A DNA stretch of 64,000 nucleotides from Bacteroidales bacterium (GTDB lineage Bacteria; Bacteroidota; Bacteroidia; Bacteroidales; VadinHA17): the NCBI GenBank assembly GCA_016928075.1, contig JAFGLJ010000046.1:1-64000 (forward strand), given 5' to 3'. A program made the translations under genes and the position numbers. Below the pieces are notes generated by a model, which did not search any database, was not told the origin of the DNA, and saw nothing but the letters and a program-made list of their open reading frames with translations. Shown one piece after another: positions 3,348-57,829 of this stretch; within the stretch, counting starts at the first letter, position 1, and the number at the start of each line of letters is the position of its first letter.

Positions 3348-5774
3348 ATGAAAAAATCGCTATTTCTGTTTGTCCTGTTATCATTTGTTGCAGGAGGTAT
3401 CGTTGCCCAGGATGGCCTGAAATACCAGAAGCCGCCTGAAGATATCGTTGAGATAATGATGGCAAGTCCAACACCTTCGGTATCAATTAGCCCTGATGGC
3501 ACTACTATTGTACTGACGGAAAGACCCGGCATGCCTTCGATTGAAGATCTTTCAAGAGAAGAATTGCGCCTTGGCGGATTGAGAATTGACCCGGATGTCA
3601 ATGGTCCCAGCAGGAATTCATATGCAACGGGTATTTACCTGATGAATATTGACGGTACGGCCAGGAAAGATCTTAAAGGTTTACCTGATGATCTTAAACT
3701 TGGTAGTTTCTCCTGGTCGAATGATGGTAAAAAATTTGCCTTTACCAATACAACAGATAACAGCCTAGAATTATGGATTGGAGATGTTGAGACCCTGGAG
3801 GTGAAGAAGATTGATGATAACCTTAACCTGGTTCTCGGGTCGCGCGGTTATGGCTCACGCGGGCTCAGATGGATGCCTGATAATAGGAGTATAGTATACC
3901 AGGCTATAATACCCGGCAGGGGAGAATGCCCGGAGCCTTCACCTGTGCCCGAGGGGCCTGTTGTACAGGAAAACCTTGGTAAAAAGGGTGCGGCAGCAAC
4001 CTTCCAGGATTTACTTTCGAATCCTGTCGACGAGGCAATATTCGAATACTATGCGGGTTCAGTAATAAAAATATGGAACGGATCAACAGTAGAACAGATT
4101 GGCAAACCCGGGATATATGGATCGGTCGATCCATCACCGGATGGTAAGTATTTACTGGTTCAGACCGTGGAAAAACCATTCTCATATACTGTTCCGTATT
4201 ATTACTTTCCCTCAATTGTTGCTATCTGGGATATGGATGGAAACCTTGTCAAAAAGCTGGCAGATCAGCCCCTGAAAGAGAACCTGCCACGGGGTTATGA
4301 TATGACATTCCCTGAGCCCAGCGGGTTTACGTGGAGAAATGATAAGCCCTCAACAGTCCTATGGGTTAAACCCCTTGACGATGGTGATTTTGAAAAGGAG
4401 ATGGAATACCATGACCAGGTATATGTGCTTGATGCACCCTTTGATGGTGAACCACAGGAATATTTAGCAACCAAGCTCAGGTTTGGGGGAATTACCTGGG
4501 GTAATGACGACATGGCGATATTCAGTGAGAGGTCGCGAAAGGAGAGGCTCGAGGTGCAGACAATGTTCGATCCTGATGATCCTATGGCTACCAGGAAAGA
4601 GATCTTCAGGCTTCATTCTGAAGACCGTTATAACAACCCGGGTAATTTTGTTACCACTGAAAATGAGTTCGGACGTAGAGTACTCCTTTTTACCGACAGG
4701 GGCAGGTCACTGTTACTGACTGGAAGAGGTGCTTCACCCGAGGGAGACCGTCCTTTCATTGATAAATACAGGATTAAAGATGGAACGACAACCAGGTTTT
4801 GGAGATCAGAAGCCCCGTATTATGAGGACGTGGCTGATATTCTGCCGGAGCAGGAAGATCTTGTCATTACTACAAGGGAATCGATTGATATACCACCAAA
4901 CTATTTTATCCGTAACCTGAAAAACGGTAAGCTTACGCAAATAACACACTTTGAAAATCCCTATCCACAGCTGGAAGGAGTAAGCAAGGAGCTTATCAAG
5001 TATAAAAGAAACGACGGGCTGGACCTCTCATTTGAACTTTACCTGCCAAAAGGCTATGACAAGGAAAAGGACGGTCCGTTACCTGCTATATTATGGGCTT
5101 ATCCTCGTGAATACCAGAGCCAGGATGCTGCAGGTCAGGTTTCAGGCTCGCCATACAGGTTTATCAGGGTGAGCCCTTCATCAATACTTGTATTTGTTAC
5201 ACAAGGATATGCTATAATGAATGATGCAGCATTCCCTATTGTGGCCCGGGATAGTCTGGAGCCAAACGACACCTTCAGGGACCAGCTTGTTGCCAATGCA
5301 CAGGCCGCAATAGACAAAGGGGTAGAACTTGGGGTCGTCGATCCTGACAGGGTAGCAGTAGGAGGACATTCATATGGCGCATTCATGACTGCCAACCTTC
5401 TTGCCCACTCACGTCTTTTTGCAGCAGGTCTGGCAAGAAGCGGGGCTTATAACCGTACCCTTACACCTTTTGGATTCCAGAATGAGAGACGGTCATTCTG
5501 GGAGGCCCCGGACCTGTATTTCTCTATGTCTCCATTCATGCATGCCGATAAGGTCAAAGATCCTATATTGCTTATACATGGTCAGGCAGATAATAACAGC
5601 GGTACATTCCCGATACAGAGTGAAAGATATTATGCTGCACTGAAAGGGCATGGAGCAATCGTAAGGCTGGTGCTGCTTCCAAAGGAAAGCCACGGTTATT
5701 CATCGGCAGAATCATTGATGCACATGCAGTGGGAAACATACCAATGGCTGGAGAAATATGTGAAGAATAAATAA
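3348..5774 (+). CDS. Secreted S9 family peptidase (glutamyl-endopeptidase-like)
   Basis: An 808-residue prolyl-oligopeptidase-fold serine peptidase. A signal peptide (KKSLFLFVLLSFVAGGIVAQ) sends it to the periplasm or outside. An N-terminal beta-propeller-type region (about 40-540, with repeats such as WSNDGKKFAFTN and PDGKYLLVQT) precedes the alpha/beta-hydrolase domain. Catalytic residues are visible: Ser675 in GGHSYGAF, Asp748 in HGQADNNSG and His782 in ESHGYSS. The GGHSYGAF context resembles the S9D glutamyl endopeptidases related to the plant chloroplast enzyme; cleavage after Glu is therefore an inference. The start was placed at 3348 because it gives a clean signal peptide and lies after the promoter element at 3289. 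It stands alone, with repeat arrays on both sides. Confidence 0.9.
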   Translation: MKKSLFLFVLLSFVAGGIVAQDGLKYQKPPEDIVEIMMASPTPSVSISPDGTTIVLTERPGMPSIEDLSREELRLGGLRIDPDVNGPSRNSYATGIYLMNIDGTARKDLKGLPDDLKLGSFSWSNDGKKFAFTNTTDNSLELWIGDVETLEVKKIDDNLNLVLGSRGYGSRGLRWMPDNRSIVYQAIIPGRGECPEPSPVPEGPVVQENLGKKGAAATFQDLLSNPVDEAIFEYYAGSVIKIWNGSTVEQIGKPGIYGSVDPSPDGKYLLVQTVEKPFSYTVPYYYFPSIVAIWDMDGNLVKKLADQPLKENLPRGYDMTFPEPSGFTWRNDKPSTVLWVKPLDDGDFEKEMEYHDQVYVLDAPFDGEPQEYLATKLRFGGITWGNDDMAIFSERSRKERLEVQTMFDPDDPMATRKEIFRLHSEDRYNNPGNFVTTENEFGRRVLLFTDRGRSLLLTGRGASPEGDRPFIDKYRIKDGTTTRFWRSEAPYYEDVADILPEQEDLVITTRESIDIPPNYFIRNLKNGKLTQITHFENPYPQLEGVSKELIKYKRNDGLDLSFELYLPKGYDKEKDGPLPAILWAYPREYQSQDAAGQVSGSPYRFIRVSPSSILVFVTQGYAIMNDAAFPIVARDSLEPNDTFRDQLVANAQAAIDKGVELGVVDPDRVAVGGHSYGAFMTANLLAHSRLFAAGLARSGAYNRTLTPFGFQNERRSFWEAPDLYFSMSPFMHADKVKDPILLIHGQADNNSGTFPIQSERYYAALKGHGAIVRLVLLPKESHGYSSAESLMHMQWETYQWLEKYVKNK

Positions 5775-15152: not shown

Positions 15153-15600
15153 GATTGGTCCTTTGTTAATTAACACGATAAAGATAGGAAACTCTTTATA
15201 AAAGGCTGAGGCTAAGGCTAAGGCTAAGGAATTCCGCTGGTGCGGATCTGGCTATGGTGGATAGCAATGGAACCGAGGAACCTGAGATTGCGAAGCAAAC
15301 GAGGGTGACGAGCTCGACGAATCCACGAGGACTCGGGATGAGTCAATATTGTCTTTCCTGCTCCCTGCATTGTCCTCCGAAGCACGAAGTGCGTAGGAGG
15401 GCTCCCTGCTTCGTCCGTCGTAGTCCGGAGGACGTAGGTGGACTCCCTGCCATCCCCCACGGCGTGGGTTAATAATAATAGCCCCGGTAACACCCGGGGT
15501 AGAAGGGATATCATAAATCACCCCACACCCCCGCGAGGGGCTGAATAATTCCTTAGCCTTAGCCTTCAATTATTTACTACCTTTGCTAAAAACAGCCGAG
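15153..15600. repeat. Hairpin-rich repeat island bounded by a 20-base inverted repeat
   Basis: A 448-base divergent gap without a credible gene. A perfect inverted repeat, AAGGCTAAGGCTAAGGAATT (15214-15233) and its complement (15547-15566), encloses 313 bases. Inside are CTCCCTG words (near 15361, 15402, 15442) and an imperfect CCTCCGAAGCAC hairpin (about 15372-15398). There are also CCCAC-GGC-GTGGG (near 15456), CCCCGG-TAACAC-CCGGGG (15482-15499) and CCCC-CGCGA-GGGG (near 15530). GC content is well above the surroundings. Long frames exist here only because stops are scarce in the GC-rich words. The ion-channel -7 candidate (15179-15186, minus) lies at the left end. Confidence 0.75.
15179..15186 (-). 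promoter_or_regulatory. Candidate -7 element of the ion-channel gene
   Basis: Minus-strand TATCTTTA, one mismatch from TAnnTTTG, 27 bases before the ATG at 15152. It argues against the upstream GTG at 15176 as the start codon. Confidence 0.45.
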
Positions 15601-16470
15601 ATGAAAAGGATACTACCTTATTTATTAATTCTCTTTACAATATTTATTTCCTGCAATTCGGATCAGGGCATTAAGCTAAAAGTACTCACCCTCAACATAC
15701 GCTATGACAACCCTGCTGATGCACCAAACGACTGGCCATCAAGAAAAAATTTCGTTTTATCATTCATTGAAGATGAAGCGCCCGATATCTTTGGACTACA
15801 GGAAGCACTCTGGCACCAGTATCATTTTCTCGATTCAGCGCTTACCGGTTATGAGTCAATAGGTGCTGGGAGGGATGATGGAGAACGCCAGGGGGAGATG
15901 ACCCCTGTTTTTTACAGTGAAGAGCGGTTCCGGGCTGTTAATTCAGGCACTTTCTGGTTATCAGAAACACCTGGTGTTTCGGGCAGCAGGGGATGGGGCG
16001 CGGTATTGCCGAGAATAGTCACCTGGGTAGAGCTGCAAGATATTTCTTCAGACGGGAGATTCTTTTTTTTCAACACCCATTACAGTCATATGTCGGATTC
16101 GGCCAGGCTCATGAGCTCCTGGATAATACTGGAAGAGGTGAAAAAGACAGCCGGCGATTCCCCTTTTGTACTGACGGGTGATTTTAACATGCTCCCGGGC
16201 AGCCAGGCGTATACCACGCTGACGGAGGAGGGACGGGAAGGAGCCTTAATTACTGATTCATACCTGATCAGCGAAACAGAGCCTGCAGGACTTGCCTATA
16301 CGTTTAACGGTTTCAGGGATGAAGAAGGTGAAGGCAGGATAGATTATATTTTTGTAAGCAGTGATGCCAGGGTTCTGAGCCACGAAATCAAAGGCCCCAG
16401 GCAGGGAGAATTATTTCTTTCCGACCACTGGCCGGTGGGGGCGGTGCTGATCTTTCGTACCAGGGACTAA
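15601..16470 (+). CDS. Endonuclease/exonuclease/phosphatase-family lipoprotein
   Basis: 289 residues from the ATG at 15601. The signal ends in a lipobox (TIFISC) about residue 18, so it is anchored to a membrane facing the periplasm or surface. The EEP domain shows LKVLTLNIRYDNP, DIFGLQEALWHQ, VLTGDFNMLPGS, GRIDYIFVSSDARV and LSDHWPVGAVL, all metal and catalytic residues in place. Proteins of this type are often annotated as secreted metal-dependent hydrolases or sphingomyelinase-like; the substrate here is unknown. It is monocistronic. The final codons (Arg-Asp-stop) already belong to a GGACTA-word repeat that continues into the downstream array. Confidence 0.87.
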   Translation: MKRILPYLLILFTIFISCNSDQGIKLKVLTLNIRYDNPADAPNDWPSRKNFVLSFIEDEAPDIFGLQEALWHQYHFLDSALTGYESIGAGRDDGERQGEMTPVFYSEERFRAVNSGTFWLSETPGVSGSRGWGAVLPRIVTWVELQDISSDGRFFFFNTHYSHMSDSARLMSSWIILEEVKKTAGDSPFVLTGDFNMLPGSQAYTTLTEEGREGALITDSYLISETEPAGLAYTFNGFRDEEGEGRIDYIFVSSDARVLSHEIKGPRQGELFLSDHWPVGAVLIFRTRD

Positions 16471-16688
16471 GGACTATGGCCATTAGTGCAGGGGGCATGG
16501 AGCAGGGAGCAAGGGGGTGTGCTGGTAGCGTGTCTCTACAATTGCCGGTAATAGGTTGCTTGCTGTAAAATTCTATTAGACGCGCTGGTAGCGCGTCTCT
16601 ACATTAGCTAAAAATAATAAACACACTGTAAAATTTACGCTATCAACGTTATCAACTTTATCGACTCCCTGCTCCCTGCCCCCTGCTA
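16471..16688. repeat. Convergent-gap array: inverted CTCCCTG words and AGACGCGCT hairpin
   Basis: Fills the whole stop-to-stop gap. Left arm 16484-16517 (GCAGGGGGCATGGAGCAGGG and on) is the inverse of the right arm 16665-16690 (CTCCCTGCTCCCTGCCCCCT). Between them is a perfect 9-base stem with a 3-base loop, AGACGCGCT-GGT-AGCGCGTCT (16578-16598). GCTGGTAGCGYGTCTCTACA occurs at 16521-16540 and 16584-16603 with 19 of 20 bases the same. The right arm runs directly into the stop codon of the minus-strand gene. No U-run typical of an intrinsic terminator follows the central stem. Confidence 0.75.
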
Positions 16689-29346: not shown

Positions 29347-29418
29347 GATTTAAGATCAACGATTTTAGATTGCAGATTTTTCTTCTTAAATCTTAAATCG
29401 TTAACCTTAAATCTAAAA
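29347..29418. repeat. Imperfect AT-rich inverted repeat filling a convergent gap
   Basis: The 72 bases between two stop codons consist of GATTTAAGAT-type words on the left and ATCTTAAATC-type words on the right. A 21-base arm just after the left stop pairs with 29392-29412 in about 18 of 21 positions, with further GATTTTAGATT/AATCTAAAATC pairing. A bidirectional terminator is plausible: T-rich and A-rich tracts lie next to the stem. Confidence 0.6.
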
Positions 29419-57737: not shown

Positions 57738-57829
57738 AAAAGTTGAGAAGGTTGAGAAGGTTGAGAGTGAGTTGAGAATGAATTTGGCATACTCCCTGCT
57801 CCCTGCTCCCTGCCCCCCGCTCCCCGCTA
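57738..57829. repeat. Convergent-gap arrays of GTTGAGAAG and CTCCCTG words
   Basis: The gap between the ahcY stop and the Rieske-like gene's stop consists of AGTTGAGAAGGTTGAGAAGG and related words (57741-57780) followed by ACTCCCTGCTCCCTGCTCCC and related words (57791-57829). The second array ends in GCTATTA, where TTA is the complement of the minus-strand stop codon, exactly as at 16.68 kb. Confidence 0.7.

What the first reader, a model, noticed from the sequence alone, without database searches (positions are those of the whole stretch)
15153..15600. Repeat island closed by a perfect 20-base inverted repeat
AAGGCTAAGGCTAAGGAATT at 15214-15233 is exactly inverted at 15547-15566, enclosing 313 bases packed with GC-rich hairpins and CTCCCTG words. 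The terminal arms themselves are tandem GGCTAA words. This is the outline of a small non-autonomous mobile element or a large structured RNA, but I see no target-site duplication and no coding sequence.
Basis: seen in the sequence. Interest (0 to 1): 0.7.

Follow-up and report, generated by a model that had tools for sequence, protein, structure and literature searches.

The report
Gene-less mobile element packed with repeats
The 20-base inverted repeat is a pair of tandem-word arms of a kind that elsewhere flanks a small gene (an S23-type four-helix-bundle gene) like the two ends of a mobile unit; here no gene is left and several other families of hairpin repeats sit between the arms.

Summary
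The inverted repeat is real, but the island is not one element. Both arms are arrays of a dispersed hexamer (AGGCTRA); between them lie other dispersed repeats, three clear (B, C, D) and one weak fragment (E). B and D stems covary; D and E flank a few RAYT genes. Orthologous regions in the two relatives that keep both neighbours differ.

The arms are the main find. AGGCTRA arrays face each other around a 23S_rRNA_IVP (S23, PF05635) gene in three genomes. Of 78 such genes scored, 63 lie between inverted, mostly 7-base, tandem words (cross-locus control 2.3%; ordinary small genes here 2 of 116). Words differ between loci but follow protein subfamily across genera. One orthologous site has 4 bp between genes in two genomes and 191-528 bp with such arrays in three.

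The window is best read as a gene-less derivative of an S23/IVP unit colonised by REP-like modules. No gene remnant was detected; how units move is unknown. My literature searches listed no description of such units.

The parts
15202..15229 (+). Left arm (A): tandem AGGCTRA hexamer array, purine strand pointing into the intergenic region
   Evidence: the 16-base pattern with up to 2 mismatches has 103 placements in the genome (overlapping, several per array), reversed-pattern control 0
15235..15249 (+). Possible E fragment: CGCTGGTGCGGATCT, 14 of 15 bases like a repeat that flanks the 188-aa Y1_Tnp gene at G000:C64
   Evidence: weak: comparison by eye, for the letters; repeat seen; not scored against chance
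15266..15351 (+). Module B: two adjacent stem-loops, flanked elsewhere by TGGAATA words
15357..15450 (+). Module C: two tandem 41-bp units, hairpin inside CTCCCTG (GGGAGCA) words
15452..15548 (+). Module D: hairpin 1, TTAATAATAATAGCC spacer, hairpin 2, then a third hairpin ending CTGAATAA
   Evidence: 15454-15503 scores 68.1 bits with model R1, which was built with this copy included
15547..15566 (-). Right arm (A): inverted AGGCTRA array, upstream of the exonuclease/endonuclease/phosphatase-like gene (name by recall)
16488..16509 (+). Left arm of the next intergenic island of the same design, GGGAGCA words; its inverted partner is at about 16665-16686 (155-base loop)

Best explanation
The two arms are the ends of one subfamily (word AGGCTRA) of a mobile unit that consists of an S23/IVP gene (PF05635, a four-helix-bundle family that the DGR protein Avd resembles) between inverted arrays of a subfamily-specific tandem word. 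In the window no gene is left, and REP-type palindromic modules (D, and perhaps E, linked to Y1/RAYT transposases; B and C of similar style but with no identified mobiliser) lie between the arms. Shown: dispersed copies of A, B, C and D; inverted word arms around S23/IVP genes; words following protein subfamily; such arrays present or absent at one orthologous site; shorter gene-less stretches between AGGCTRA arms that align with intact units in relatives. Inferred: that the window pair was once one unit with a gene; that units move, and as DNA hairpins or single strands; that RAYTs placed the modules. Unknown: the enzyme that moves S23/IVP units.
For: Parts are dispersed: 45 matches of the island in its genome, in separate pieces (17). 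AGGCTRA pairs with an intact gene: own C50 (L041), G016 (L299), G040 (L302); of 21 AGGCTRA pairs in fetched loci, 3 hold the gene, 6 align directly with an intact interior, 5 link to those only through another pair, 7 (window, L042, L079, L080, L306, L307 with 25 bases, L309) do not. Own genome: 11 PF05635 matches, tandem words seen by eye in every flank present; by score 9 of 10 reach 14, L322 scores 8, L326 is cut. Of 84 entries 78 had both flanks of 150 bp or more; 63 reach 14, cross-locus pairs 2.3%; without L299 and L302, chosen for their arms, 61 of 76. Genes of 250-650 bp: 2 of 116 here, 1 of 91 in six relatives. Cross-genus pairs with protein score 0.65 or more share words in 13 of 24 (10 of 21 without the three AGGCTRA pairs), 0.5-0.65 in 2 of 77, below 0.5 in 4 of 1690; Mantel p 0.002, the floor of 500 permutations, rho 0.13. 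Site between a PFL-like and a ROK-like gene (names by recall): G015 and G023 have 4 bp between the genes, G040 528 bp with the AGGCTRA unit, G050 256 and G014 191 bp with TGGAA-type words. D and RAYT: 2 of 29 Y1_Tnp matches in the seven genomes with D. E and RAYT: L010 and L148.
Against: No S23/IVP remnant between the window's arms (E limit 0.05). In G001 only the right array is AGGCTRA while the left side has TGGAATA-type words, so the arms may have separate histories. Arrays of different words in one intergenic region keep the order that matched arms have (18 of 26 pairs), which the unit model does not by itself explain. Only 10 of 20 tandem arrays in the unselected DNA match a resident S23/IVP flank. 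15 of 78 S23/IVP loci and 13 of 30 phylum loci do not reach the arm score. Most RAYT loci examined lack D and E: pattern scans found E beside two Y1_Tnp genes only, not beside L147, L149-L152, the other close relatives of the C64 gene, and strict D patterns beside none; neither own RAYT has D by model. No target-site duplication was defined. Close loci are not independent in the word-protein test. The genome is an incomplete assembly (76%).
Confidence: 0.66

Rival explanations
1. The tandem words are edge-of-gene regulatory or insulating signals (for example C-rich, G-poor RNA entering a gene that Rho could use), kept by selection; S23/IVP genes merely sit among them.
For: Words point the same way at gene edges whatever the gene direction: 59 inward, 8 outward for unambiguous arrays within 70 bp of a gene; 80 and 21 when far and ambiguous ones are added (families overlap and most stretches were picked around matches). 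The purine-strand array lies left of the pyrimidine-strand one in 26 of 26 pairs from 22 regions, 18 with different words. In G001 the left word differs from the window's but points the same way.
Against: Does not explain why words match between the flanks of S23/IVP genes and follow protein subfamily across genera, nor sites with 4 bp between the genes. Word-free detection in unselected DNA gives weaker polarity, 19 inward to 6 outward at edges, 1 to 3 in the middle, 9 unskewed. No transcription data here.
Confidence: 0.13
2. One small non-autonomous element: arms and all inner modules move together.
For: Perfect inverted ends, compact size, folding better than shuffles.
Against: No second copy with the same inner order among the 45 matches (one search scored 40 of 80 candidates); modules occur elsewhere with other neighbours.
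Confidence: 0.06
3. A large structured regulatory RNA whose long stem is the 20-base repeat.
For: z -4.6 as RNA, covarying stems in B and D.
Against: Stem changes are those of dispersed repeats, not of orthologs of this island; at S23/IVP loci arm mismatches are as often A-C (77) as G-U (84); not conserved at the two orthologous sites.
Confidence: 0.05
4. Microsatellite slippage plus chance: two hexamer arrays happen to face each other.
For: The words are tandem and array length varies.
Against: Facing order in 14 of 14 AGGCTRA pairs closer than 600 bp in the rows listed for five relatives (a capped list, read by eye) and in 26 of 26 word pairs of this genome; cross-locus controls do not give it.
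Confidence: 0.05

Closest known systems
23S rRNA intervening sequence (IVS) with S23p ORF, as in Coxiella burnetii (PMC4990558, passages seen)
   Same: S23 protein ORF, complementary ends forming a stem (28 bp there), tandem heptamers (GACAGAT) before the ORF, held by the authors to be a selfish element acquired horizontally
   Different: Here the units lie between genes, up to 21 matches per genome, both arms are tandem-word arrays, and words differ by protein subfamily; excision from RNA was not tested
REP/BIME palindromes and RAYT (Y1_Tnp) transposases (PMC3733652 abstract; PMC2817692, PMC3116915, PMC8266576 search listing only)
   Same: D and E are short palindromes that flank Y1_Tnp genes in some loci here; D often lies in opposed pairs
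   Different: GTAG/CGTC tags were not tested; B and C have no identified transposase; here modules lie between AGGCTRA arms
Intergenic TAACTGA heptamers in Beggiatoaceae, Cyanobacteria and some Bacteroidetes (PMC4679880: abstract, passages, Bacteroidetes section read)
   Same: Short tandem words at gene edges with orientation bias; other heptamers in some of the same regions
   Different: The parts I read do not link words to S23/IVP genes or to matched inverted arms
DGR accessory protein Avd (PMC10053308, passages seen)
   Same: PF05635 resembles Avd according to that paper
   Different: 34 of 50 genomes with PF05635 matches have no PF00078 reverse-transcriptase match

Membership tests
S23/IVP unit, AGGCTRA subfamily | inverted arrays of the subfamily word facing inward | tested here: met
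S23/IVP unit, AGGCTRA subfamily | PF05635 gene or remnant between the arms | tested here: not met
   no match at E 0.05; so a gene-less derivative by inference, not filed as a full member
S23/IVP unit, AGGCTRA subfamily | presence/absence of the unit at the orthologous site | tested here: inconclusive
   G001 has other cargo and keeps a short right array, G010 is short with other words
23S rRNA IVS | located inside an rRNA gene | tested here: not met
   between two protein ORFs, no Rfam match in the window
23S rRNA IVS | excised from RNA by RNase III | not testable with these tools
   needs RNA experiments
REP of RAYT (module D) | same palindrome flanks a Y1_Tnp gene | tested here: met
   2 of 29 Y1_Tnp matches: G003:C22 (D at 15978, 16071; gene 16216-16563; read) and G010:C80 (D at 4525, 4690, 5323; gene 4880-5227; from coordinates only):
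REP of RAYT (module D) | GTAG or CGTC tag | not tested
   not examined
REP of RAYT (fragment E) | the window holds a copy of the palindrome | tested here: inconclusive
   14 of 15 bases by eye, no second half; the palindrome itself flanks Y1_Tnp genes in L010 and L148
MITE | terminal inverted repeats | tested here: met
MITE | several copies alike over full length | tested here: not met
   for the window island (40 of 80 candidates scored)
MITE | target-site duplication | tested here: inconclusive
   none seen by eye

The most novel reading that the evidence does not exclude
Across Bacteroidota, free-standing S23/IVP genes and their word arms form an undescribed class of minimal mobile element: a four-helix-bundle protein of about 120-130 aa that specifies, recognises or propagates its own tandem word on both arms, moved in trans by a host or HUH (Y1) single-strand enzyme rather than a reverse transcriptase, and the source of much of the tandem-word DNA between genes.
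Probability: 0.45. Interest if true: 0.9.

Novelty: new variant of a known kind. Interest (0 to 1): 0.72.

Why it matters
S23/IVP proteins are best known as ORFs of rRNA inserts, and the paper I saw calls the function and origin of those inserts unclear (PMC4990558, passages). A unit in which protein subfamily and flanking word co-vary gives the protein a concrete, testable partner (its own arms) and offers an origin for part of the tandem heptamer DNA between Bacteroidota genes. It also explains composite repeat islands such as this one as old units filled with REP-like modules.

Tried and rejected
Rfam: nothing at gathering score in the window. One-element reading: no second full copy among the matches scored. 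General intergenic composition as cause of word polarity: in G000 no purine difference between halves (p 0.2) but a GC-skew difference (p 0.001), so composition is not wholly excluded; six relatives show no overall difference. RNA-level selection on arms: G-U 84, A-C 77, p 0.64. Reverse transcriptase as mover: PF05635 count against RVT_1 count rho -0.01; against Y1_Tnp count rho 0.57, p 2e-6, not corrected for descent, and 7 of the 50 genomes with PF05635 have no Y1_Tnp match. All tandem words from resident S23/IVP units: only 10 of 20 arrays match (foreign flanks 3.1 on average, random own chunks 1.1). Literature: searches listed nothing; others listed papers that I judged by title and start of abstract except the four opened; none showed S23/IVP genes between matched word arms. 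Most subscription papers are not in the library.

Full report
1. Observation. The 20-base inverted repeat 15214-15233 / 15547-15566 is exact with 313 bases between. The left array is longer, 15202-15229. The island fills most of the region between a potassium-channel-like gene on the minus strand and an exonuclease/endonuclease/phosphatase-like gene on the plus strand (names by recall from sequence). It folds better than shuffles as RNA (z -4.6) and DNA (z -3.8). The genome is held without a name; nearest named MutL matches are Bacteroidales or Bacteroidia metagenome genomes.

2. The island is a mosaic. Searched in its own genome (2.76 Mb, 76 contigs, 76% complete) it gives 45 matches in separate pieces; 40 of 80 candidates were scored. 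They fall into A, AGGCTRA arrays (103 overlapping placements of a 16-base pattern, control 0; 44 arrays in the stretches then fetched); B, 15266-15351; C, 15357-15450; D, 15452-15548. A possible fragment of palindrome E, 14 of 15 bases, lies at 15235-15249 (by eye). No listed match has the same order. B: 9 copies, 5 of 13 consensus pairs with changes on both sides. D: 13 copies, 8 of 12.

3. Modules and RAYTs. E flanks the Y1_Tnp gene at C64 and both sides of a 38%-identical gene in G013; it was not found beside L147 and L149-L152, the other close relatives. D as model R1 is found in 7 of 30 genomes, own included (17 matches own, 55 in G003; 150 candidates scored per genome, so lower bounds). 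It lies beside Y1_Tnp genes in G003 and G010, 2 of 29 Y1_Tnp matches in those seven genomes, and not beside the two own ones; strict D patterns found none. B often lies in TGGAATA words and C in GGGAGCA words; their mobiliser is unknown.

4. Orthologous sites. Only two relatives keep both neighbours. In G001 (channel 82% identical) the region holds TGGAATA-type words, another palindrome and a short CCTTAGCC-like stretch at the right edge; in G010 (71%) it is short with GTTGATA words. Cargo turns over; the right array seems older than the split from G001.

5. Word polarity. Seven word families were tested; among unambiguous arrays within 70 bp of a gene 59 point inward and 8 outward, and 80 to 21 when far and ambiguous ones are added; inside-gene and contig-edge arrays were set aside. 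Where both directions occur in one intergenic region, the order is the same in 26 of 26 pairs from 22 of 341 regions, 8 with the same word (4.3 expected, p 0.011). Most of these stretches were picked around matches. In the unselected set (462 kb with the window, 189 regions) there are 7 inverted repeats of score 13 or more, controls 0.33, all 7 with a purine-richer 5' arm, one of them barely; word-free tandem detection gives 19 inward to 6 outward at edges.

6. Source of the arms. AGGCTRA matches occur in 17 of 60 genomes, own included, all in one family, two with a single match, the level of the control. In its capped listing, 14 facing pairs under 600 bp have the plus array first and none the reverse (by eye). 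Of 21 pairs in fetched loci, all face inward; 3 hold an intact gene (L041, L299, L302), 6 align directly with an intact interior (L153, two in L297, L298, L303, L304), 5 link only through another pair (L296, L300, L301, L305, L313), 7 do not, the window among them.

7. General rule. The own genome has 11 PF05635 matches, 10 over the curated cut-off, with tandem words seen in every flank present (by eye); by score 9 of 10. PF05635 occurs in 50 of 60 genomes, own included. I scored 84 entries: the 11, 29 loci given, 42 more from its capped list, plus L299 and L302; six were dropped for short flanks; 63 of 78 reach score 14, controls 2.3%; 61 of 76 without L299 and L302. Period 7 in 31 of 63. The 5' arm has more G than C in 53, fewer in 7, equal in 3. 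Ordinary genes: 2 of 116 and 1 of 91; one of the two is gcvH-like between two TGGAATA islands (name by recall). In the phylum 157 of 198 genomes have PF05635; of the 30 best-scoring loci, not a random sample, 17 reach 14, control 3.1%; G over C in 16, equal in 1.

8. Word and protein. Among 63 loci, cross-genus pairs with protein score 0.65 or more share words in 13 of 24, with 0.5-0.65 in 2 of 77, below 0.5 in 4 of 1690. Dropping the AGGCTRA trio leaves 10 of 21. Related loci recur in several pairs, so pairs are not independent. This is what gene and ends of one mobile unit would show.

9. Orthologous site. Between a PFL-like and a ROK-like gene (by recall) G015 and G023 have 4 bp from stop to start, G040 528 bp with the AGGCTRA unit and its gene, G050 256 bp with TGGAATA words and a C-like hairpin, G014 191 bp with facing TGGAA-type words and no gene seen.

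10. Mechanism. Association, co-variation and presence/absence are shown; movement is inferred. PF00078 matches are absent in 34 of 50 genomes with PF05635, among them G049 with 21 copies at 91% completeness. PF05635 number correlates with Y1_Tnp number (rho 0.57, uncorrected for descent; 7 of 50 have no Y1_Tnp match), which fits single-strand hairpin movement but proves nothing.

11. Literature. C. burnetii's 23S rRNA IVS has an S23p ORF, a 28-bp terminal stem and tandem heptamers before the ORF (PMC4990558, passages). TAACTGA heptamers (PMC4679880: abstract, passages, one section) and REP/RAYT work (PMC3733652 abstract; others listing only) describe the component kinds. PF05635 resembles Avd (PMC10053308, passages). 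Searches listed no paper that by title or start of abstract describes S23/IVP genes between matched word arms.

Noticed in passing
window 16471-16688: The next intergenic region has the same design with GGGAGCA arms (16488-16509 and about 16665-16686) around 155 bases.
   Followed up: partly
window 29347-29371 and 57742-57828: A further inverted pair (GATTTAA-like, loop 17) and neighbouring GTTGAGA and CTCCCTG arrays.
   Followed up: no
G003:C1:45484-45980: Seven D matches in a regular tandem of about 75 bp.
   Followed up: no
L053, L068, L069: D copies (opposed pairs in L053 and L069, one in L068) lie inside a MITE-like frame with ends like GAGTCCACTCCGAAAAGTC (by eye).
   Followed up: no
L320 / L041: The S23/IVP reading frame runs on into its AGGCTRA arm and ends in LSLSLSL.
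   Followed up: no
L296, L313 (G016) and L300, L301 (G041): Copies share outer flanks but have two different interiors between AGGCTRA arms (by eye).
   Followed up: partly
S23/IVP arms in general: The 5' arm has more G than C nearly always (53 to 7 of 63; 16 to 0 of 17), unexplained.
   Followed up: partly
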